A stretch of DNA of 64,000 nt. It comes from Acidimicrobiaceae bacterium. GTDB taxonomy: Bacteria; Actinomycetota; Acidimicrobiia; Acidimicrobiales; Aldehydirespiratoraceae. Under the pieces are notes generated by a model. The model did no database searches and was not told the DNA's origin. It was given only the letters and a program-made list of their open reading frames with translations. Positions 413 to 12,400 of this stretch are shown here, piece after piece (position 1 is the first letter of the stretch; each line of letters opens with the position of its first letter). The translations under genes were made by a program, and so were the position numbers. The stretch covers positions 1 through 64,000 of the forward strand of contig JAPOYA010000032.1 in assembly GCA_026706815.1 (NCBI GenBank). Reading direction: 5' to 3'.

Positions 413-832
413 TCAGCTTGTGGGGTCTCGGAGGGTGATCAAGTGCGTGCGTGACACCCACTCTTGGATTGCCGAGTCGAAGGTCGCCAACTCCATACCG
501 GTCTGCACGGCGGTAGCAACGATCAGTTGGTCTGCTGGGTCGCGGTGGAATCCCGAATTCATCAACAGGACGGATTCCACAGCGAGATCGCCGTCAATGG
601 GGATCTCGCGTAAGCCAGACATGAGACGTTCCCGACGCCAGGTTGCCGGGTGGCATCCGAGATCGATACGTCGGTCATGATGCAGCCGGGTTGTCTCCAT
701 GAACGTGACCGCGGACACTGCGACGTTGCCGTCGTCTAGGCCAGCTTCGATGTCGTGCTTGAACGTCTTGCCGACGTGTCGGCTGTCGGACAGCAGCCGC
801 AGCAACACGTTGGTGTCCAAAAGCACGCTCAC
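413..832 (-). CDS. PIN-domain ribonuclease toxin (VapC-like)
   Basis: 139 residues, the normal size of a VapC-type toxin. The N-terminus 'VSVLLDTNVLLRLL' carries the first PIN aspartate (D6). An acidic residue in 'VTFMETTRL', the pair in 'RDPADQLIVATA' and the aspartate in 'ATFDSAIQ' complete the metal-binding set expected of a magnesium-dependent RNase. GTG at 832 was chosen because it overlaps the antitoxin stop as GTGA and removes a non-conserved N-terminal extension. The overlap implies translational coupling to the upstream antitoxin. By family knowledge such toxins cleave RNA when the labile antitoxin is lost; the target cannot be read from sequence. Confidence 0.85.
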   Translation of the reverse strand: MSVLLDTNVLLRLLSDSRHVGKTFKHDIEAGLDDGNVAVSAVTFMETTRLHHDRRIDLGCHPATWRRERLMSGLREIPIDGDLAVESVLLMNSGFHRDPADQLIVATAVQTGMELATFDSAIQEWVSRTHLITLRDPTS

Positions 833-1161
833 TGGTATCGCTCGGGGTTGAGCAATTCGTCGGGCCGGCCAATCACATCCCAATCTTGTTGTGGAATCGC
901 CGACTCGCCGTCGATGTCAGCCAATATCTGAAGCTGCTCCGCGCATGATCCGACCAGCTTGGGGCGCTCCGTGCGGATCGGGCTGATTCGCACGACCGGA
1001 CGACGATGTTTCGTCACAATGATCTCAGTGCCTGTCTCGTTCACCTCATCCATGAGGCGCAGACAGTTCGTCTTGAACTCGCCTGCCGGCACTAATCGCC
1101 CCTGAGGGAGGGATTGGGTCGAATCCTTCGTTTCTGAATCCATCTCAACGATGATAGCCAT
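829..1161 (-). CDS. Phd/YefM-type antitoxin
   Basis: 110 residues. The central 'VPAGEFKTNCLRLMDEVNET' plus 'IIVTKHRRPVVRISPI' is the Phd/YefM DNA-binding fold (the x-x-x-F-K-x-x-x-x-x-L-x-x-x-V pattern followed by a T-K-x-x-x-P-V-V strand). The C-terminal part, rich in acidic residues and proline, would bind and neutralise the PIN toxin encoded immediately downstream with a GTGA overlap. The start is uncertain: ATG at 1161 gives a leading 'MAIIVEM', and a second in-frame ATG at 1143 would fit better if the TATATT hexamer at about 1164-1169 is the -10 element. Antitoxins of this family normally repress their own promoter. Confidence 0.85.
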   Translation of the reverse strand: MAIIVEMDSETKDSTQSLPQGRLVPAGEFKTNCLRLMDEVNETGTEIIVTKHRRPVVRISPIRTERPKLVGSCAEQLQILADIDGESAIPQQDWDVIGRPDELLNPERYQ

Positions 1162-1231: not shown

Positions 1232-1879
1232 TCAGGCGGCTTCGCTGGTTCCCCCGTTCGACTCCGGGTCTGTGGCCGTGGGCAAACCGATCCTGAGGAT
1301 GCCTTCGATGCGTGCTAGCCGCTCGCGGGCATCGCCGAGGCTGGACGCCATGTTGTTGAGGCTCTTGATGACTGTGTCGTGATTGCGTTCGGTCACTCGT
1401 TTGTATTCGTTCAAATCGGTTGTCAGTGTCTCTGTCTTTTGCTCGATCAACGCGCACTCCCGCTCGACCAACTCACGATTCTTCTCTGTCACCTGCTCGA
1501 TCAACTCACGATTCTTCGCGCACTCCCGCTCGACCAACTCACGATTCTTCTCTGTCACCTGCTCGATCAACTCACGATTCTTCGCGCACTCCCGCTCGAC
1601 CAACTCACGATTCTTCTCTGTCACCTGCTCGATCAACTCACGATTCTTCGCGCACTCCCGCTCGACCAACTCACGATTCTTCTCTGTCACCTGCTCGATC
1701 AACTCACGATTCTTCTCGCTCGCCTGGGTGATGAGTTGGCGGGTTTGGGTGCTTTCGCGGTGTTGGACGCGTATTGAGCTGACCATGAGCGTGGTGAGCG
1801 TCGCGAACATCACACCGAAGGCCGCGCCGAGGGTCGTCAACACCGCTGTGTCGATTCCTGTTCCCGCCATGGATTCCAT
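1232..1879 (-). CDS. Membrane-anchored protein with eight 11-residue coiled-coil repeats
   Basis: 215 residues. Residues about 10-35 ('TAVLTTLGAAFGVMFATLTT') form one hydrophobic segment, probably a membrane anchor. From about residue 55 the chain is a perfect alternation of 'KNRELIEQVTE' and 'KNRELVERECA', four copies of each. It ends with a charged linker and a second helical part ('SLNNMASSLGDARERLARIE') before a disordered tail. An exact 11-residue period favours a hendecad coiled coil over the usual heptad. Each 22-residue pair contains one cysteine, giving regularly spaced thiols. ATG at 1879 was chosen because a TAGGGT box lies exactly 6 nt upstream, as in other leaderless genes here. 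No enzymatic motif is seen and the function is unknown. Confidence 0.7.
   Translation of the reverse strand: MESMAGTGIDTAVLTTLGAAFGVMFATLTTLMVSSIRVQHRESTQTRQLITQASEKNRELIEQVTEKNRELVERECAKNRELIEQVTEKNRELVERECAKNRELIEQVTEKNRELVERECAKNRELIEQVTEKNRELVERECALIEQKTETLTTDLNEYKRVTERNHDTVIKSLNNMASSLGDARERLARIEGILRIGLPTATDPESNGGTSEAA
1455..1714 (-). repeat. Four tandem 66-bp repeats inside the coiled-coil gene
   Basis: Units begin at 1455, 1521, 1587 and 1653 and are near-identical at the base level, including synonymous positions; only the end of the last unit diverges. Each 66-bp unit itself contains two related 33-bp halves (11 codons each). Base-level identity shows recent expansion or continuing homogenisation, so the copy number is probably variable between strains. 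Confidence 0.9.
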
Positions 1880-3214: not shown

Positions 3215-3585
3215 CGCACGTGGCACGAACGAGTGAAAATTGACACTGCAACGGAGATCGCGTCAAAAAGGGACTTGGGTCCGGCCAGCGGATTGTGCCA
3301 ACCGGACCCTGTTTTCCCTGGAGGGGGACGGGAATGAAGTTCCCAAGCCTGAAACATCCGGCCCTGCGCCCGGATGATCTCAAACTCATGTGCAACATTA
3401 GTACAAAATTCCAAACACGGTCAACATTTAAGCAAAGAAACCGCAATGAAAAAGTAAAGAACTGGGGAAAACTGTACACTAGTTTCATTGAAATACTATG
3501 AAACGAGGGGTATCCCGGTTGGGATCCCTATCGGAAATGCTTCACTCGCGTTTCGACAGACGCCACACAAGCCCAATGTGTCGGC
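3215..3585. other. Intergenic region with three nested inverted repeats, partly AT-rich
   Basis: No convincing gene is present. Three perfect inverted repeats sit within 100 bases: GGGTCCGG/CCGGACCC (3277-3284 with 3302-3309), GGGAA/TTCCC (3330-3334 with 3340-3344) and CATCCGG/CCGGATG (3355-3361 with 3370-3376). A further ATCCC/GGGAT pair lies near 3512-3525. The stretch 3380-3500 is distinctly AT-rich compared with its neighbours. The first repeat is followed by TGTTTT and could act as a terminator on the plus strand, but no plus-strand gene precedes it. Confidence 0.5.
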
Positions 3586-4380
3586 CTAAGTGTCGAAGAA
3601 CTCGCCGGCGTTCACCAACAGGCGTTGCCCGGTGATCATCCGCGCCCGGTCCGAAGCAAAGAACACCGCCGCTTCAGCCACATCCGCGTCCGTGGGCATG
3701 ACCCGCAGTGCCATTCCCTGCGCGATTTCGTCTCTCACCTCTTCTGCGGTGATACCTCTTTCAGACGCTTGCCACTCGCAATACATCCGGACGTTGGGTC
3801 CCCACATCCAGGTCGGGACAACGGTGTTGACTCGGATGCCCTGCGGTCCGAGCTCCGCGGCCATGTTCCGAGCCATGGCGAGCAGGGCGGACTTGGCGGC
3901 CGCATAGGCGAACTGCGGGATCGCAGGCACCGGCTTGAGCGACGCTTGCGACCCGATCAACACGATCGAGCCGCCGTGCTCATTCGCTGCGAGTGCGGGC
4001 GTGACCGAGCGGACCACGTTGACAGCACCCAGCGCGTTGATCTCAAGAACCGTTCGCAGACCTTCATCGTCAAGGTCGGCGAGAGTGCCCATCGTCGCAT
4101 CCATCGCGGCGACGTTGATCACCGCGTCCAGCCTGCCGAAGCGTTCCACACCAGCGCTGACCGCCGCATTCAGCGACTCCAGATCCATCATGTCGGCCCC
4201 GGCGACAAGTGTCCTCTCACCCGTGGGATCGAGTTCGGACGCCGTTTCCTGGAGTCGCTCCAGATTGCGAGCCACCGCGATCACGTTGGCGCCGTCGCAC
4301 AGTGATGCCGCGGCGCACGACCTGCCGAGTCCGGGTCCGACCCCGACCACCATCACTGTCGAGTCTTGAAGGATCATCAT
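3586..4380 (-). CDS. Short-chain dehydrogenase/reductase (SDR)
   Basis: 264 residues, classical SDR length. 'MVVGVGPGLGRSCA' is the N-terminal Rossmann glycine motif, 'INVAA' replaces the usual N-N-A-G, 'IVLIGSQAS' carries the catalytic serine and 'YAAAKSALL' the Y-x-x-x-K pair. 'RVNTVVPTWMWGP' and a C-terminal 'ITGQRLLVNAGEFFD' complete the fold. It should oxidise or reduce a hydroxy/keto group with NAD(P)H. ATG at 4380 (or the adjacent ATG at 4377, better spaced) follows a GGGAG ribosome-binding site and removes an unrelated N-terminal extension. The gene begins just after the stop of the upstream gene at 4389, so the two are probably co-transcribed. Confidence 0.9.
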   Translation of the reverse strand: MMILQDSTVMVVGVGPGLGRSCAAASLCDGANVIAVARNLERLQETASELDPTGERTLVAGADMMDLESLNAAVSAGVERFGRLDAVINVAAMDATMGTLADLDDEGLRTVLEINALGAVNVVRSVTPALAANEHGGSIVLIGSQASLKPVPAIPQFAYAAAKSALLAMARNMAAELGPQGIRVNTVVPTWMWGPNVRMYCEWQASERGITAEEVRDEIAQGMALRVMPTDADVAEAAVFFASDRARMITGQRLLVNAGEFFDT

Positions 4381-4388
4381 TTGCTCCC

Positions 4389-5192
4389 TTACCAGAGTTG
4401 ATCGGTGTAGGTGTCGGTCCCAACGATCGTCGGCAGGAACGGGGCGGCAAAAACCACTTCGCCGATTCCACTCGCCGCGAGATTGTCGGCGTAGGTGCGG
4501 AATCGATCCCAGACAGCGGTCGGCTCGTCGTCGAGAAAGAAGCACTGCAACTGTCGGTCTACGGGCCCTGGCGGCATGCCGAGATCCATCGGGGCGCGGT
4601 CCGTGTCGCCGCTGCCGGAATCTTGGTAGTGCCACGACGCCATGCTCGCGACCGGAGAGTCCTTCATCAGCGCCGGCAGGGCCTCGTCCTGGAGATGCGC
4701 CACCAACTGCTCCTCGCTCACATCCTCTGCAGGGTTCACCGCCACCACCGCCAGACCCTTGTAGGGGTGGTCCAAAGCCAACTCGATCGGAACAGGGTCA
4801 GCGTCGCGATAATGGCAACTAGGGCGTTCCAACAGCACGGTGTGCGCATGGACGCGGTTCGCGAACCCCCTGTCGTTGCTGTAGAGCCACACGACCTGAT
4901 CCACAGCCCAGGAAAAGTGTTCCACATGGCTTCCTTCGAGGACGTAATAGATCGCCAGATAGGAGCCAGCCTCAACTGGACTGGCCACCGGCGTGTCGCC
5001 GCGCGGGAAGCGCAGATCCTTCAGCTCTTTAGTGGCGACCCATCGCTTCCCCGCGAAGAGCTTCGGGCCGATCATGCAGCCGGCGTAGAAATGGTCGCGT
5101 TCATACCAGCGGTTGTACTCGACTTCGTAACCCCTCTCGGGGTCGACCATCGTGAACAACATGGAACCGACTCTGATGGGGTAGTCGTTCAT
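4389..5192 (-). CDS. Conserved hypothetical protein, possible two-part ferredoxin-like (Dabb/EthD-like) fold
   Basis: 267 residues. The N-terminal half contains 'YEVEYNRWYERDHFYAGCMI', reminiscent of the W-Y-x-x-D-H-x element of EthD/dimeric alpha-beta barrel proteins. The second half ('GLAVVAVNPAEDVSEEQLVA', then 'SMASWHYQ') looks like a second copy of such a domain. No signal peptide, membrane segment or catalytic motif is visible. It lies between a MaoC-type gene and an SDR gene transcribed the same way, 8 bases from the SDR start, so it probably serves the same CoA/lipid pathway. The family assignment is tentative. An AAAGG element precedes the ATG. Confidence 0.6.
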   Translation of the reverse strand: MNDYPIRVGSMLFTMVDPERGYEVEYNRWYERDHFYAGCMIGPKLFAGKRWVATKELKDLRFPRGDTPVASPVEAGSYLAIYYVLEGSHVEHFSWAVDQVVWLYSNDRGFANRVHAHTVLLERPSCHYRDADPVPIELALDHPYKGLAVVAVNPAEDVSEEQLVAHLQDEALPALMKDSPVASMASWHYQDSGSGDTDRAPMDLGMPPGPVDRQLQCFFLDDEPTAVWDRFRTYADNLAASGIGEVVFAAPFLPTIVGTDTYTDQLW

Positions 5193-5245
5193 CTCGTGCC
5201 TTTGTTCAGGGGACTTCAGCGTTCGTCGTGTGAGAGTTCACGCAA

Positions 5246-5716
5246 TCAGCCGTCGAATACAATCCTGGCGATCCATTCGGCAATCAGCGCAGGCTTGGCG
5301 GCTCCCTCAATCTCGACGGTGATCACCCGGGTGCTGTTGATCGCCGCTCCCTTCAACTCAACTTTGCTGATCACGCTGCCGGCGCGGACCCGGCTCCCGG
5401 AGACGACCGGATTGATGAACCGCACCCGGTCAAAGCCGTAGTTGATTCCCATCATCACACCGGTCAGCGGTGGGAGGTTCTGCTCAATGGAACCGGTCAG
5501 GTGCGTCAGCATCGACAGCGTCAGGAAACCGTGGGCGATAGTTCCGCCGAACATCGGCGTCGCACGCTGTGCGTCCATGTGGATGAACTGATGGTCGATA
5601 GTGCAGTCGGCAAACTGGTTGATCTGTTCCTGGGTTATCTCAAACCAGTCGCCGTGGCCCTCATCGACGCCCTCACCGGCTTTGAGAAGTTCGTAGGCGT
5701 TTGCTGCGTTGCTCAT
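5246..5716 (-). CDS. MaoC-type hotdog (R)-enoyl-CoA hydratase
   Basis: 156 residues, the size of a single-hotdog MaoC hydratase. 'QFADCTIDHQFIHMDAQRA' followed by 'FGGTIAHGFLTLSMLTHL' is the family signature: aspartate and histidine of the hydratase-2 motif and the G-x-x-x-H-G-x-x-x-x-S helix. It should add water to trans-2-enoyl-CoA. ATG at 5716 has GGAG six bases upstream; the alternative ATG at 5728 lacks such spacing. It is divergent from the inositol-phosphate synthase gene, about 110 bases away, and heads the leftward group with the hypothetical protein and the SDR. Confidence 0.9.
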   Translation of the reverse strand: MSNAANAYELLKAGEGVDEGHGDWFEITQEQINQFADCTIDHQFIHMDAQRATPMFGGTIAHGFLTLSMLTHLTGSIEQNLPPLTGVMMGINYGFDRVRFINPVVSGSRVRAGSVISKVELKGAAINSTRVITVEIEGAAKPALIAEWIARIVFDG

Positions 5717-5814
5717 CAGGATCTCCATGGCTTGTTGTCTGTTCGATTGTCTCGACCGTCGTGACTCTAGAGCGAACCCGCGCCGCGCAACACTTCGAGC
5801 AGCGCCAGTGCTCA

Positions 5815-5820
5815 TATGCT
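5815..5820 (+). promoter_or_regulatory. -10 box TATGCT of ino1
   Basis: TATGCT is followed by 6 nt and the ATG at 5827, predicting a leaderless transcript. Confidence 0.5.
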
Positions 5821-5826
5821 CAGAGG

Positions 5827-7124
<1,298 letters not shown>

Positions 7125-7128
<4 letters not shown>

Positions 7129-9590
7129 TCGCCCGCCGCCAGGTCGATCTCGAGCACGCCTCGGCTTATCAGACTCTCGATCTCGGCGTCGTCGAGGCCC
7201 AGCCATTCTGAAGCGATCTCGCGGGTGTGCTCTCCGAGTCCCGGCGCCGGGAAGATGTCGGGGGCGTCCATGGCTGAGGCATGGAACGCGGCTCCCTCGA
7301 AGATCATGTCGCCGATCGGCGGCTGATACATGTGATGCAGATAGCCGCGGGCCTCCAGATGGGCATCTGTGGATTGCGAGCCCGCGGTGTGCATGACCCC
7401 CGCGGGGACTCCCGCGGCCAGACAGACATCGACCACTTCCCCATTGGGCATGGTGCGGGTCCACTCGGAGATCTTCTCGTCGACAGCAGCTTCGCCGGCG
7501 CGGCGCTCCTGCTCCTCGGCGAGCTCTGGACTCGCGGCCCAAGCAGGTGACCCCATCACTTCGACCAGTGCTTGCCATTCGCGGTCATTGCGCACACAGA
7601 TCGCAACCCAACGGTCATCGCCTTCGCAAGGATACAGGCCCCATGGCGAGCCGTGGTCGGAATGATTGCCGCGGGGTCGCACTGAGCCGGGGACCAGCGA
7701 CTCCTTGGCCAGCAGGTCGCCGATCGCCGACACAGCTTGTTCAACTTGGCAAACCTCGACATGCGCCCCACCGGTGCCTCGCTGCGATTGTCGGCCCGAC
7801 AACAGCTGTTGTCCCAACAACTGGGCCATCGCAGCCACAGCACAGACCCGACCTGCGAAATGATCGGGGTGGATCACCTGGTTTCCCGCCGGTTCCGGGT
7901 GGTTCTCGTAGTTCCACAGGTGCGCTAGACCGCCAGTTACCTGGGTGTTCGGACCATATCCGAACCAGTCGGCCCAGAGCCCCCGCGAGCCCATGAGCTG
8001 ACTCGAGACCATCACCACATCAGGGTTCTCTGCAGACATTTCGCCGTACCCGAGCCCCATATCCTCCATCGTTCCGGTGGAGTTGTTCTCGATCACCACA
8101 TCGGCGTCTCGAACCATCCGCAGCAGCAGTTCGAGCCCCCGCTCGGTCTTGGCGTTGACTCCCAGGCTGCGTTTGGAGCGGTTCGACGAGGCGAACGAGG
8201 GGGACATCTCGCCTCCGAGCACAGACCGGATGAAGTCGACATAGCTGCGGCTCTCGATCTTGACGACATCCGCTCCGTACTCGCCGAACATGCGTCCGCA
8301 CTCCACACCGACCCCGCCGTGCCCGAAGTCCATCACCCGCAGACCCCTCAGCGGCAGAGCTTTGCCTTGCGGTTCGGCGGCTTGTGATCGGACCCACTGG
8401 CGGGCAGTCTCAGCGAATTCCAAGTCGCGGCTCTCTGTGCCCGTCCCGCAGCGGAGTGAGGCGAACACCTCCTCGGTGTGTTCGCCGACATGGGGAGGTC
8501 GGCCCACAGGCCCGCAACGCTCGCCGTCAATCTCGAACCAACCCGAGGGCAACTTCATTGTCCTGCCGTCGCTGATCTTCACGTGATCGAACGTATTGCG
8601 GCTCTCGAAGTGGGGATTGGCCAGAACATCGCCGGGCTTCAGGAACGGAGTGCAGACTATCCCCCGTGCTTGGGCCTGTTCGGACACCTCGGCCATGGTC
8701 ATGGACGAGAACAGTTCGGAGTACAGGGGATTGAGCACCGCATCGGCGATCATCAGGCGTCCGATGAAGGTGTCGAGTTCGGGGTCTTGGAGATAGTCGG
8801 GTTCCCCCAGCCATGAACGAATGGCGTGCCACTGGCGCGGGCTGAGCACAATCAGGCGGACGAAGCCGTCCGCGCACGGGATGATCGTGTAGACGACTCC
8901 CGGTCCGGCTCGCTGTTCAGGCGGCGGCTCACCGGCATCGGCTGAGCGGCTCCAATTCGACAGCGACCAGTCGGTGATCTGGGCGACGCACTCATTGGCG
9001 GACGCGTCGATCACCTGGCCGACGCCCGTGTTGTTGCGCTGCCAGAGCGCGCACAGGATCCCGAACGCTGTGGTGAACGAGGCTGTGTCATCGGCGATGT
9101 TGCCCGGCGGTAGGATCGGGCCCCCCTCATGGGTGCCTGCCTTGAAAGCCATCCCGCCGGTCGCGTCGACGACCGCGTTGGGCACATCACGGCCAGCCCA
9201 AGGCCCGGTTCGGCCATAGGCGGTGATGGAAGCCGCGATCAGGTGAGGGTTGTTTGCCGAGAGCTCTTCTGCGTCGAGTCCAGAATCGACATGGGTTCCC
9301 GGCTCTGCGGAGTCGATGACCACATCGCTCGCATGGATGAGCTCATGCAGCGAACTGCACTCGGCGTCGTTGGAAAGGTCGACCACCACGCTCCGCTTGC
9401 CGCAGTTGCGGAAGGTCCAGAACAGCGAATGGTCGGCGTCGATAGGCGCCATTGTGCGTGAGGGGGAACCGCCGGGAGGTTCGACTCGAATGACGTCTGC
9501 ACCCAGGTCGCTCAGAATGCGACCACAAAATTCACCGCGTTCAACGGTCAGGTCGACAACTCGAATCCCGGCAAGTGGACGAAGGACCAC
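7125..9590 (-). CDS. Tandem class III (CaiB/BaiF-type) CoA-transferase fusion
   Basis: 821 residues, twice the usual length, made of two complete CaiB-like units in one chain. Unit 1 starts 'PLAGIRVVDLTVERGEFCGR' with 'DVIRVEPPGG'; unit 2 starts near residue 408 with 'LRGLRVMDFGHGGVGVECGR' and 'DVVKIESRSYVDFIRS'. Each has the long insert and a C-terminal 'VARGIVC/AAGVPAGVM'-type segment. Such enzymes move CoA between carboxylic acids through an aspartyl-CoA intermediate; normal members dimerise as interlocked rings, so a covalent tandem may be a pseudo-dimer. GTG at 9590 was chosen because AAGGGGGG precedes it and the family begins right at P-L-x-G-I-R-V; ATG at 9635 or 9710 would add a non-conserved leader. 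Confidence 0.85.
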
Positions 9591-9767
9591 ATTCCCCCCT
9601 TGAAGCTCAGCGCTGATCGTAGCCGTGCCCCTCATCGCAGACGCAATGCCACGGTGGGTCCGTGCCTGAACCGCAGTAGTGCCGATTCCACTACATTGAC
9701 GATTCTCCATTCTTGACAAATGGGGTTGTTCGAGTTCCGTCAGGTCCGGTACATTGGCCGTATTCTT

Positions 9768-9810
9768 CCCCGCCTGCCCTGGTTCCAGGGCATGGCGGGG
9801 CTACTTTTTT
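9768..9810 (+). terminator. Strong intrinsic-terminator-like hairpin ahead of the NYN gene
   Basis: CCCCGCC-T-GCCCTGG, a two-base turn, then CCAGGGC-AT-GGCGGGG, followed by CTAC and six T. The stem has 14 GC-rich pairs with one small internal bulge. It points in the direction of the NYN gene and ends only 5 bases before that gene's GTG. No plus-strand gene lies upstream, so it can only affect a transcript that starts in this intergenic region, possibly from TTGTTC-N18-TACATT (9727-9756). This suggests attenuation or a short RNA. Confidence 0.7.
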
Positions 9811-9815
9811 GTCTC

Positions 9816-10448
9816 GTGCCTGGCGACCGCGTTGTTGTATTCATCGATTACCAGAACGTGTACCATCGCGCCCGCTCTTCGTTTTTCGAAGGTGCTAAAC
9901 CCCCAGTGCAAGCTGGACACGTCCATCCGCTGAAGGTCGGTGAACTGCTTCGCGATCTTGGCCGAAGCAAAGACTCCGGTAGGGTGCTGGCCGCCGTTCG
10001 GGTCTACCGGGCTGTTCCCGACATGCGCAGCGGCACCGACTTGGAACGGGCCACCAAAATCCAGATCGCCGGCTGGGAAACGGAAACAGGCGTCAAGGTG
10101 TGCACCCGGCCGATGGACTACATCGAGACAACAAGACGCGGGAAGCAGCACTGGGTGGGCCGCGAAAAGGGCATCGATGTCATGTTGGCGGTTGACTTGG
10201 TGGACATGGCCCGAACAGACACCTACGACGCCGCGGTCGTGTTCTCCGCCGACACCGACCTACTACCGGCCTTGGAGACCGCTGTCAGGATCGGCAAACG
10301 CATCGAAACCGCCACCTGGAGAGGCCCCGGCGACAACCGCGGGCCGCTGCGCATCAAACAGCACAACCTGTGGAACCACTACCTCGAACAGCCCCATTTC
10401 GACCTAGTGAGAGACGACACCGATTATCTGCGTCCGCCCTCTGATTAG
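9816..10448 (+). CDS. NYN-domain (PIN-like) nuclease protein
   Basis: About 210 residues from GTG at 9816. 'GDRVVVFIDYQNVYHRARSS' is strand 1 with the catalytic aspartate and asparagine of LabA/NYN proteins. 'EKGIDVMLAVDLVDMA' followed by 'DAAVVFSADTDLLPALETA' supplies the next acidic residues (D in G-I-D-V and the S-A-D-T-D pair). These are metal-dependent RNase folds. The start is uncertain: ATG at 9792 falls inside the terminator-like stem, and GTG just before the first strand is preferred. The gene is isolated, next to a broken BREX-type gene, so an accessory or defence role is possible but not shown. Confidence 0.8.
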   Translation: MPGDRVVVFIDYQNVYHRARSSFFEGAKPPVQAGHVHPLKVGELLRDLGRSKDSGRVLAAVRVYRAVPDMRSGTDLERATKIQIAGWETETGVKVCTRPMDYIETTRRGKQHWVGREKGIDVMLAVDLVDMARTDTYDAAVVFSADTDLLPALETAVRIGKRIETATWRGPGDNRGPLRIKQHNLWNHYLEQPHFDLVRDDTDYLRPPSD

Positions 10449-10504
10449 GTCGAACTGCAGCGGCAGCACCCCCTGGTGTTGTCCGATCATGTCCCTTCCT
10501 ACGT

Positions 10505-11236
10505 TTACCAGCGGGACCGGATGTACTCGATTGCGTCCCTCGCGTTATAGCGCCGGGTCGAGTTGCCCATTCGCACGTAGAACTCGGCGTCATCACCTAG
10601 GTAGACCGGTCTTGGGCTAGGCCGGACATCCAGCCTACAGACGTCACCCTCCGGGAATATCTCGAACGTCACGTCTACGAGGGTGGCTGCCGGCAACTTT
10701 CCGATCTCCCGGTCGAGCCGCGTGATCAGCCAGTTCTCAAAGCCGTCCCGGCCGTTGTTGCCAGTGGTTGCGTAGTCATCGGTCATGCCGGTCGGGTCCT
10801 GCCTGTCGTGCACGCCGATCAGGAGGACGCCCCCACCCGCGTTCATAAATCCAGCGACGGACTTCAAGACACTGTGTTCGAGCTTTTTGTCGACCTTGCT
10901 GGTGTAGGGGTTGTAGCGGGCGGTCTGTTTGTACTCGACAGTCTTGCTTTCGCCAGCCTCAATCAGCTCCGACGTCGAGCGGCGCTGCTCGTGCTCGACC
11001 TCGGCCACATCGATGTCGGGCTCGGTATCGAGTTCATCGGGTTGCTCTGGGACCTCGACCCAGATCTCGCGTCCCGTGTCGTTTTCTAAGTACGAGAACG
11101 CCGTCTTGGCGTAGTCGTGGAAAGCGAGCTTCTTGAGTTGCTCTTTGACTCGACGCCGACCCTCCATGGCGAACTCGAGGTACTCGCGGAGGTCGCCATG
11201 ACTCCACTCACCGTGCGGGTGCAGGATCTTCAGCAA
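10505..11236 (-). pseudogene. 3' part of a frameshifted BrxL-type protein, fused to an AlbA_2 domain
   Basis: The first part, 'LKILHPHGEWSHGDLREYLE' plus 'MEGRRRVKEQLKKLAFHDY' and 'FSYLENDTGREIWVEVPEQ', matches the region after the ATPase core of BrxL, the Lon-like protein of BREX phage-defence systems. Where longer BrxL forms carry a Lon peptidase domain, this chain has an acidic linker and then a complete AlbA_2 (Schlafen-type) domain: 'SKTVEYKQTARYNPYTSKVD', 'NAGGGVLLIGVHD', 'FYVRMGNSTRRYNARDAIEY'. The apparent ATG at 11236 is only where the frame reopens. Coding sequence continuous with the upstream ATPase half runs back to about 11292, where one base appears to be missing. Confidence 0.8.
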
Positions 11237-11949
11237 ACCAGAAACGGTCTTGCGTACCGCGCGCTCGTCTCGTGCCGACAGATGCGAACCGAGCGAGAAT
11301 CCGCGTCAATAGCCCGTACCTGGCTGTTCTTGCGGAGTTGGCGCATCGCTTCGGCGAAGTAGTCAGACACGAAACCGAAATGATCGGTAAACAGCCTCGC
11401 TTCGAGCTTCGGTGTCTCCCAACCGGGCAGGTAGTAGTGCAGCCGGTCGAGAAACGCAGGGTCGATCATCTGGGGTGGGAGATCCGCGAATAGGTGTGCC
11501 GCACGAACTAGCTCCTCATGGGGCTTCGAGGTGTTGCCGATGAAAACAACCGAGGCCTCTGTTGGGATTTCTTCCTTGCCCCGAGCAAACGACCCGGACT
11601 CCATGAAGTCCTTCAGCATGTTGACGACGGTCGAGTCCCCCATCTGGAGGCCAGCGACCTCGTCAAAGGCAACAACGTCCCAAGTACCGAGAAGACCGAC
11701 CCGGCCACTTGACATGTTCACGAACATCTGGGGGACGGTGACCTTGCCACCGGAAATGAGGATCGCGTTCGGGTTGGACTCCCGGTAGACGAAGGACTTT
11801 CCGGTGCCCCATGGGCCGAGTTCAATGAGGTTGTAGTTCCGCTCAACCATCGGGATCAGGCGCGTGAGCGCCACCAGCTTCCCGCGAAGGTCGTACTCGG
11901 TGGACTCGAGACCGATCGTGCGATCGCCAACGACGCCGGGCCGCACCAC
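11230..11949 (-). pseudogene. 5' part of the BrxL-type AAA+ ATPase, truncated and frameshifted
   Basis: Contains a Walker A ('LIELGPWGTGKSFVYRES'), a Walker B ('WDVVAFDEVAGLQMGD'), then 'MESGSFARGKEEIPTEASVV', 'VFIGNTSKPHEELV' and 'DRLHYYLPGWETPKL'. These are the order and wording of the BrxL ATPase core. The N-terminal domain before 'ESTEYDLRGKLVALTR' is absent; sequence further upstream belongs to an acyl-CoA dehydrogenase remnant. Near 11292 the frame slips: after 'KNSQVRAIDADSR' the alternative frame continues the family sequence as 'SARDERAVRKTVSGLLKIL'. A single missing base explains the break. The gene is therefore probably dead, unless slippage restores the frame. Confidence 0.8.
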
Positions 11950-12400
11950 GCGGCCGCCACCCGACCGAGATCACGCCGCAACTCGCTGGCATACATCTTC
12001 ATGAGTGCCTGCTCAGGGGCGGTACCACCCTTAACGAAGCGGGCGAAGCCTCGATAGCCGAGCGCTCGAGCGCATTGCGCTTCGACATAGAACCCGACAA
12101 TGTCGTCGGCTGCGAGCACCTGCTCGCGCTGGTCCAACGGAGCCATGATCTCAGGGGCCATCTCCAGCAGTTGTGCCATCGCAGACTCCACGCCCATCAC
12201 CGAGTTGAGCCACACCATCGAGCGCTCATGAGCCAACGATCCACCCGCCATCTTCCAACCGTCGCTCAGTTCGCCGACGAGGTTGGACACCGGAACGATC
12301 ACGTCGTCGAGGAACACCTCGGACAGATCGGGATACGGGAAAGCACTGCACGAACATTGTCCCTCAGATCAATCTGGTCGTCGCTCAGCTCCAAATCCAG
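11950..12400 (-). pseudogene. Remnant of an acyl-CoA dehydrogenase (internal deletion, 3' truncation)
   Basis: Directly after the thiolase stop, CTG at 12400 begins 'LDLELSDDQIDLRDNVRAVL', which is a typical acyl-CoA dehydrogenase N-terminus. After about 22 residues the sequence jumps, in another frame, to the middle of the same family: 'VFLDDVIVPVSNLVGELSDG', 'GGSLAHERSMVWLN' and 'ALMKMYASELRRDL'. Some 200 residues between these points are missing, and the C-terminal catalytic part is replaced by the BrxL-like gene near 11950. The likely history is a third gene of the thiolase/HMG-CoA-synthase-like operon, decayed by deletion and by arrival or rearrangement of the accessory gene. Confidence 0.75.

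What the first reader, a model, noticed from the sequence alone, without database searches (positions are those of the whole stretch)
10505..11949. BrxL-type AAA+ core fused to an AlbA_2 (Schlafen-like) domain, broken by one base
The ATPase core of BrxL, part of BREX phage defence, is followed in the same reading direction not by a Lon peptidase domain but by a complete AlbA_2 domain. A one-base loss near 11292 splits the coding sequence, and the N-terminal domain is missing, so this copy looks dead. The intact parent, a BrxL motor coupled to a nucleic-acid-binding AlbA_2 module, would be an unusual defence architecture.
Basis: partly seen in the sequence, partly recalled or inferred. Interest (0 to 1): 0.75.

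Follow-up and report, generated by a model that had tools for sequence, protein, structure and literature searches.

The report
Dead copy of BrxL–Schlafen fusion protein
The window holds a broken leftover of a gene from the BREX phage-defence system in which the usual Lon-like tail of the ring-shaped motor protein BrxL is replaced by a Schlafen-type (AlbA_2) domain; intact versions sit at the end of complete BREX operons in related bacteria, and the swap has happened at least twice.

Summary
Window 10508-11922 (minus strand) encodes residues 194-665 of a BrxL whose C-terminal Lon-like domain is replaced by a complete AlbA_2 domain. It is broken by a one-base length difference at about 11299-11300 and by loss of the first 193 residues; the upstream end is fused into a deleted acyl-CoA dehydrogenase gene, so the copy is a relic. 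No BrxC and no convincing PglZ remain in this genome.

Intact parents exist: at least 15 distinct single-ORF proteins (BrxL core + AlbA_2) in Actinomycetota (Acidimicrobiia, Solirubrobacteraceae, Mycobacterium). Where the DNA suffices they close operons in the order (brxB-)brxC-pglX-pglZ-brxL. The BrxL tree gives one main clade plus an independent acquisition in another BrxL lineage (one origin rejected, p-AU 3e-43). The Glu-Glu-Asp triad that is catalytic in Schlafen13 is present in all 17 AlbA_2 domains checked, the relic included.

NCBI and PADLOC models name these proteins 'Lon-related BrxL', hiding the swap. A 2026 BREX survey describes only Lon-like or HKD-nuclease tails in its BrxL section. 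Best reading: a third BrxL tail type, probably a Schlafen-type nuclease effector on a DNA-loaded ring; nuclease activity is inferred, not shown.

The parts
10508..11922 (-). Relic of brxL-AlbA_2: residues 194-665 of the G004 homologue, N-terminus lost, reading frame broken once
   Evidence: tblastn 87.5-91% identity to the intact G004 protein in two frames meeting at 11299; DNA 85% over 1,419 bp
11299..11922 (-). BrxL AAA+ ATPase core with Walker A GPWGTGKS (11794-11817) and Walker B VAFDE (11659-11673)
   Evidence: PF13337 E=4e-84; TIGR02653 E=4.6e-86; PADLOC BrxL PDLC02506 E=1.1e-94
11299..11300 (-). Frame break: one base shorter than all three relatives, in a short T run of the coding strand
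   Evidence: four-way DNA alignment, only indel against G004 in the MAFFT alignment
11090..11298 (-). C-terminal lid of the BrxL ATPase domain, in the frame of the AlbA_2 part
   Evidence: PF13337 positions 266-313, E=1.5e-8; profile 242-313 by genome search
10547..10951 (-). SLFN_AlbA_2 domain, complete; acidic triad codons at 10949-10951 (E), 10934-10936 (E), 10805-10807 (D)
   Evidence: PF04326 E=1.4e-15, profile 1-117/118; triad
11915..12335 (-). Fragment of an acyl-CoA dehydrogenase gene joined to the 5' end of the brxL relic; its C-terminal codons are lost
   Evidence: 96% DNA identity to G001 where the gene is intact; PF00441
12335..12400 (-). Start of a second acyl-CoA dehydrogenase gene, joined at 12335 after loss of about 1.7 kb present in G001 and G005
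9720..10448 (+). NYN-domain gene converging on the relic; also at this site in G003 (truncated), absent in G001/G005; not shown to be part of BREX
   Evidence: PF01936 E=3e-13; synteny

Best explanation
The feature is a degenerate remnant of the last gene of a type-1-like BREX operon. The gene encoded a BrxL in which the Lon-peptidase-like C-terminal domain is replaced by a Schlafen-family AlbA_2 domain. In the intact relatives the N-terminal and AAA+ parts most likely do what they do in solved BrxL: assemble ATP-dependently as a ring on DNA. The AlbA_2 domain takes the place of the Lon-like domain and most likely acts as a metal-dependent nuclease effector of Schlafen type, using the conserved Glu-Glu-Asp triad, brought to or switched on at phage DNA when BREX detects missing methylation. 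Shown here: domain order, operon context, two independent origins, triad conservation, relic status in the window. From published work: ring assembly of BrxL on DNA; triad catalysis in Schlafen13. Inferred: that AlbA_2 cleaves nucleic acid in this protein, its substrate (phage DNA, or RNA/tRNA as in Schlafens), and when it fires.
For: Intact proteins of 664-684 aa with BrxL_N, BrxL_ATPase and AlbA_2 in G007, G004, G049 and in eight more genome-contig loci, L013-L020. Order (brxB-)brxC-pglX-pglZ-brxL in L006/L011, L008, L014-L020 and L160, with L013 from pglX on; G277 has the same brxC-pglX-pglZ-brxL order. Tree: AlbA_2 rows form a 100/100 clade of 16 rows (15 distinct proteins) plus G277 in another lineage whose sisters have Lon-type tails; one origin rejected, p-AU 2.7e-43. 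Triad E/E/D at fixed spacing (5 and 43) and Walker A in all intact copies and the relic. The profile of the tail aligns with SLFN14 (E=2.3e-6) and SLFN11 (1.9e-5) over the active-site strands; SLFN13 E205/E210/D248 are catalytic (PMC5862951). The AlphaFold model matches BrxL 8emh/8emc over about 480 residues (Z 46) with AlbA_2 as an extra confident domain. Relic: no BrxC in the genome; the one weak PglZ hit is a 371-aa protein with only 18 bits to PADLOC PglZ; empty-site comparison.
Against: The E-x4-E-[FYLW]-[KR] motif is general to the AlbA_2 modules seen here, so its conservation could be structural. The same AlbA_2 subfamily caps proteins that already carry nuclease or restriction domains (GmrSD_N, MTES_1575, type I R domain), which fits an accessory or binding role as well as a nuclease. 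In solved BrxL the C-terminal domain joins two rings (PMC10164562), so a scaffold role is possible. No activity data exist; the AlbA_2 part was not folded and searched alone. On the window branch substitutions still favour third codon positions (17/4/54), so decay is recent.
Confidence: 0.6

Rival explanations
1. The AlbA_2 domain is only a nucleic-acid-binding or dimerisation module that replaces the structural role of the dead Lon-like domain; restriction is done by PglZ and the BREX complex.
For: The BrxL C-terminal domain mediates ring dimerisation and lacks protease activity (PMC10164562; PMC12839542); AlbA_2 also caps proteins with other nuclease domains.
Against: All three acidic residues, not only the fold, are present in the 17 domains checked, including the independently acquired one in G277; swaps of the same slot to HKD nucleases are known.
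Confidence: 0.3
2. The fusion is a local accident of decay in this genome, or an assembly artefact, with BrxL and AlbA_2 separate elsewhere.
For: The window copy is rearranged and frame-broken.
Against: At least 15 distinct homologues from many separate genomes have one open frame across the joint; most are inside BREX operons.
Confidence: 0.02
3. The window copy is a living gene: the frame break is a sequencing error or programmed, and a shortened BrxL-AlbA_2 or a standalone AlbA_2 protein is made.
For: Both parts stay open apart from the one frame break; third-position bias persists on the window branch; one-base difference in a short T run.
Against: 193 N-terminal residues are gone, the 5' end lies inside an acyl-CoA dehydrogenase fragment that is itself deleted, and no BrxC is found in the genome.
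Confidence: 0.06

Closest known systems
BrxL of type-1 BREX (Acinetobacter, PDB 8EMC/8EMH)
   Same: BrxL_N and AAA+ domains, 49% identity over about 480 aligned residues
   Different: C-terminal Lon-like domain replaced by AlbA_2
BrxL with C-terminal HKD endoDNase (NAR 2026, gkag035; 1030 of 2913 type-1 taxa)
   Same: Same slot exchanged for a nuclease-type domain
   Different: HKD nuclease domain there; Schlafen/AlbA_2 domain with an E-E-D triad here
Schlafen RNases (SLFN11, SLFN13, SLFN14) and standalone Schlafen-family RNases linked to BREX loci
   Same: AlbA_2 domain and acidic triad
   Different: Here fused to the BrxL ATPase instead of a histidine-kinase-like/wHTH tail or a second Schlafen lobe
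AlbA_2-capped restriction proteins of Actinomycetota (GmrSD_N, AAA_12+MTES_1575, type I R-like)
   Same: Same AlbA_2 subfamily as the C-terminal module
   Different: Different partner; no BrxL

Membership tests
BrxL | BrxL_N (PF20442) plus BrxL_ATPase (PF13337) | tested here: met
   Intact relatives: BrxL_N E 1e-38 to 1e-45, BrxL_ATPase E 1e-119 to 1e-134; the window relic keeps only ATPase positions from 37 on
BrxL | Lon-like C-terminal domain (LonP) | tested here: not met
   TIGR02653 aligns only to 482-494 of 675; Pfam finds AlbA_2 instead. LonP is not universal in BrxL (HKD and tail-less forms), so this makes it a variant, not a non-member
Type-1-like BREX system | brxB, brxC, pglX, pglZ next to brxL | tested here: met
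   For intact relatives L006/L011, L008, L160; not so for the window relic (no BrxC)
Type-1-like BREX system | brxA | tested here: inconclusive
   A conserved upstream ORF (ORF_up in L008, L011, L160) has no PADLOC or Pfam match in L008
Schlafen / AlbA_2 | PF04326 domain, near full length | tested here: met
   Profile 1-117/118 in the window and 1-116 or 1-117 in relatives
Schlafen / AlbA_2 | E-E-D catalytic triad of SLFN13 | tested here: met
   Present in 17 of 17 copies; profile alignment to SLFN14 at the same motifs
Schlafen / AlbA_2 | RNase activity | not testable with these tools
   Needs purified protein

The most novel reading that the evidence does not exclude
BREX in some Actinomycetota has its restriction ATPase physically coupled to a Schlafen RNase, so that loading of BrxL on unmethylated phage DNA triggers tRNA or RNA cleavage and growth arrest, a route acquired at least twice by exchanging the C-terminal slot of BrxL.
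Probability: 0.3. Interest if true: 0.75.

Novelty: new variant of a known kind. Interest (0 to 1): 0.55.

Why it matters
What BrxL does in BREX is still open, and its Lon-like domain is catalytically dead. A lineage that replaced this domain, twice, with a Schlafen-type domain whose active-site residues are intact shows that the BrxL tail is an exchangeable slot (Lon-like, HKD, AlbA_2, and in one genome a protein kinase). It offers a direct test: mutate the triad and see whether restriction depends on it. Standard models call these proteins Lon-related BrxL, so the variant is hidden in annotation.

Tried and rejected
Local accident or assembly artefact as the origin of the fusion: rejected by the intact single-ORF homologues. 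A Fusobacterium record that seemed to match 91% of the fusion turned out to have no AlbA_2. Viral contigs: 22 BrxL relatives, none with AlbA_2. Plasmids: only one record covered 80% of the query, and it was that Fusobacterium record. Pseudomonadota and Chloroflexota samples (349 and 301 genomes; 14 and 30 with a BrxL_ATPase match): none of the loci examined had AlbA_2. A single origin of all AlbA_2 tails: rejected by the AU test. The structure search lists only BrxL and then MCM-type and related AAA+ chains because they fill the list; the AlbA_2 domain was not folded alone, so the link to Schlafen rests on sequence profiles and Pfam. The second model (G277) was of lower confidence (mean pLDDT 68.5) and was not searched. 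Papers with BrxL and AlbA_2 together: none held; supplements of the NAR 2026 survey could not be read.

Full report
What is in the window. On the minus strand, 11922 to 10508, the DNA encodes most of a BrxL protein with an AlbA_2 tail. The BrxL ATPase core (PF13337 positions 37-242, E=4e-84) lies in ORF 11230-11949. The last part of that domain and a complete SLFN_AlbA_2 domain (positions 1-117 of 118, E=1.4e-15) lie in ORF 10505-11236 (also with NCBIfam and PADLOC). Against the closest intact homologue (G004, same genus) the DNA is 85% identical over 1,419 bp, and the only length difference in the four-way alignment is one base at 11299-11300. Residues 1-193 of the homologue are missing.

Why it is a relic. 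From 11915 upstream the sequence is a fragment of an acyl-CoA dehydrogenase gene, 96% identical to genome G001. In G001 two acyl-CoA dehydrogenase genes are intact, and between the CaiB-type gene and that dehydrogenase homology G001 has 163 bp where the window has 9623-11914. The window also lacks about 1.7 kb at 12335. The flanks 3583-9622 and 12335 to about 18.2 kb are largely collinear with G001, so the relic sits in normal chromosome context. Read evidence for the joints was not available. The genome has no BrxC; its one PglZ-like hit is a 371-aa protein with 18 bits to PADLOC PglZ, unlikely to be a BREX protein. Substitutions on the window branch still prefer third codon positions (17/4/54), so decay is recent.

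Intact parents. Three relatives in the same family, G007, G004 and G049, have one ORF of 664-684 aa with BrxL_N, BrxL_ATPase and AlbA_2. A scan of 84,980 species genomes gave eight further full-length fusions (L013-L020) and one cut by a contig end (L021): Acidimicrobiia, a Solirubrobacteraceae MAG, Mycobacterium yunnanensis and Mycobacterium sp. E2733. In 396 Actinomycetota genomes 23 have a BrxL ATPase match and 7 of these, counting the window's own, have the AlbA_2 tail. G312 carries an in-frame stop between the parts. In samples of Pseudomonadota and Chloroflexota, in viral contigs and in plasmids none was found.

Genome context. In the fused loci with enough DNA the order is brxC-pglX-pglZ-brxL, with brxB before brxC where the DNA reaches it (G049, G007, G231); neighbouring genes overlap or nearly touch. 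This is the type-1 BREX set except that BrxA was not recognised; a conserved unknown ORF lies upstream of brxB. In G007 the BREX cluster (1.54 Mb) and the counterpart of the window locus (2.21 Mb) are at different places, which suggests that the cluster moves between sites.

Two origins. A tree of 82 BrxL cores (81 distinct) puts 16 AlbA_2 rows (15 distinct proteins) in one clade (100/100). G277 lies in another lineage whose sisters carry Lon-type tails. Holding all AlbA_2 rows together is rejected (p-AU 2.7e-43). G277 has a long branch, but a likelihood difference of 192 units is large.

How it probably works. Published structures show BrxL rings on DNA, with the Lon-like domain holding two rings tail to tail and lacking a protease site (PMC10164562; PMC12839542). 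The AlphaFold model of the G004 protein matches those structures over about 480 residues and adds AlbA_2 as a separate confident domain (pLDDT mostly 80-93) after a low-confidence linker. The tail profile aligns with SLFN14 and SLFN11 across the active-site strands. In SLFN13, E205, E210 and D248 are needed for RNA cleavage (PMC5862951). The matching residues (518, 523 and 566 in G004) are present with fixed spacing in all 17 copies, including the relic and the independent one. I therefore favour a Schlafen-type nuclease effector delivered by the BrxL ring. The substrate is open. A structural or binding role is the main rival, because the motif is general to these AlbA_2 modules and the same modules cap proteins with other nuclease domains.

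Known or new. The 2026 BREX survey describes BrxL tails as Lon-like or HKD endoDNase and lists Schlafen RNases only as separate neighbours; its supplements could not be read. No held paper joins BrxL and AlbA_2. NCBIfam TIGR02653 names the main-clade proteins 'protease Lon-related BrxL' above its cut-off although only positions up to 482-484 of 675 match. I rate it a new variant of a known kind.

Noticed in passing
L154:1012-3480 (G382:C21), also L165: BrxL_N + BrxL_ATPase fused to a Ser/Thr protein kinase domain (PF00069 E=1e-33) in a BREX cluster: another exchange of the BrxL tail.
   Followed up: partly
L113, L115, L120, L125, L131: The same AlbA_2 subfamily forms the C-terminal part of GmrSD_N, AAA_12+MTES_1575 and type I R-like proteins in Actinomycetota.
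   Followed up: partly
window 11915-12400: Two neighbouring acyl-CoA dehydrogenase genes collapsed by a deletion of about 1.7 kb relative to G001 and G005; G003 also lacks the pair at this site.
   Followed up: partly
window 1232-1879: ORF with near-identical tandem repeats (LIEQVTEKNRELVERECAKNRE), probably a coiled coil, apparently with fewer repeats in G003.
   Followed up: no
window 413-1161: Likely PIN-type toxin-antitoxin pair: PIN-like ORF 413-883(-) and antitoxin-like ORF 829-1161(-), judged from translations only.
   Followed up: no
L163 (G312:C69): A brxL-AlbA_2 gene with one in-frame TAG within a BREX cluster: a second decaying copy, or an error.
   Followed up: no
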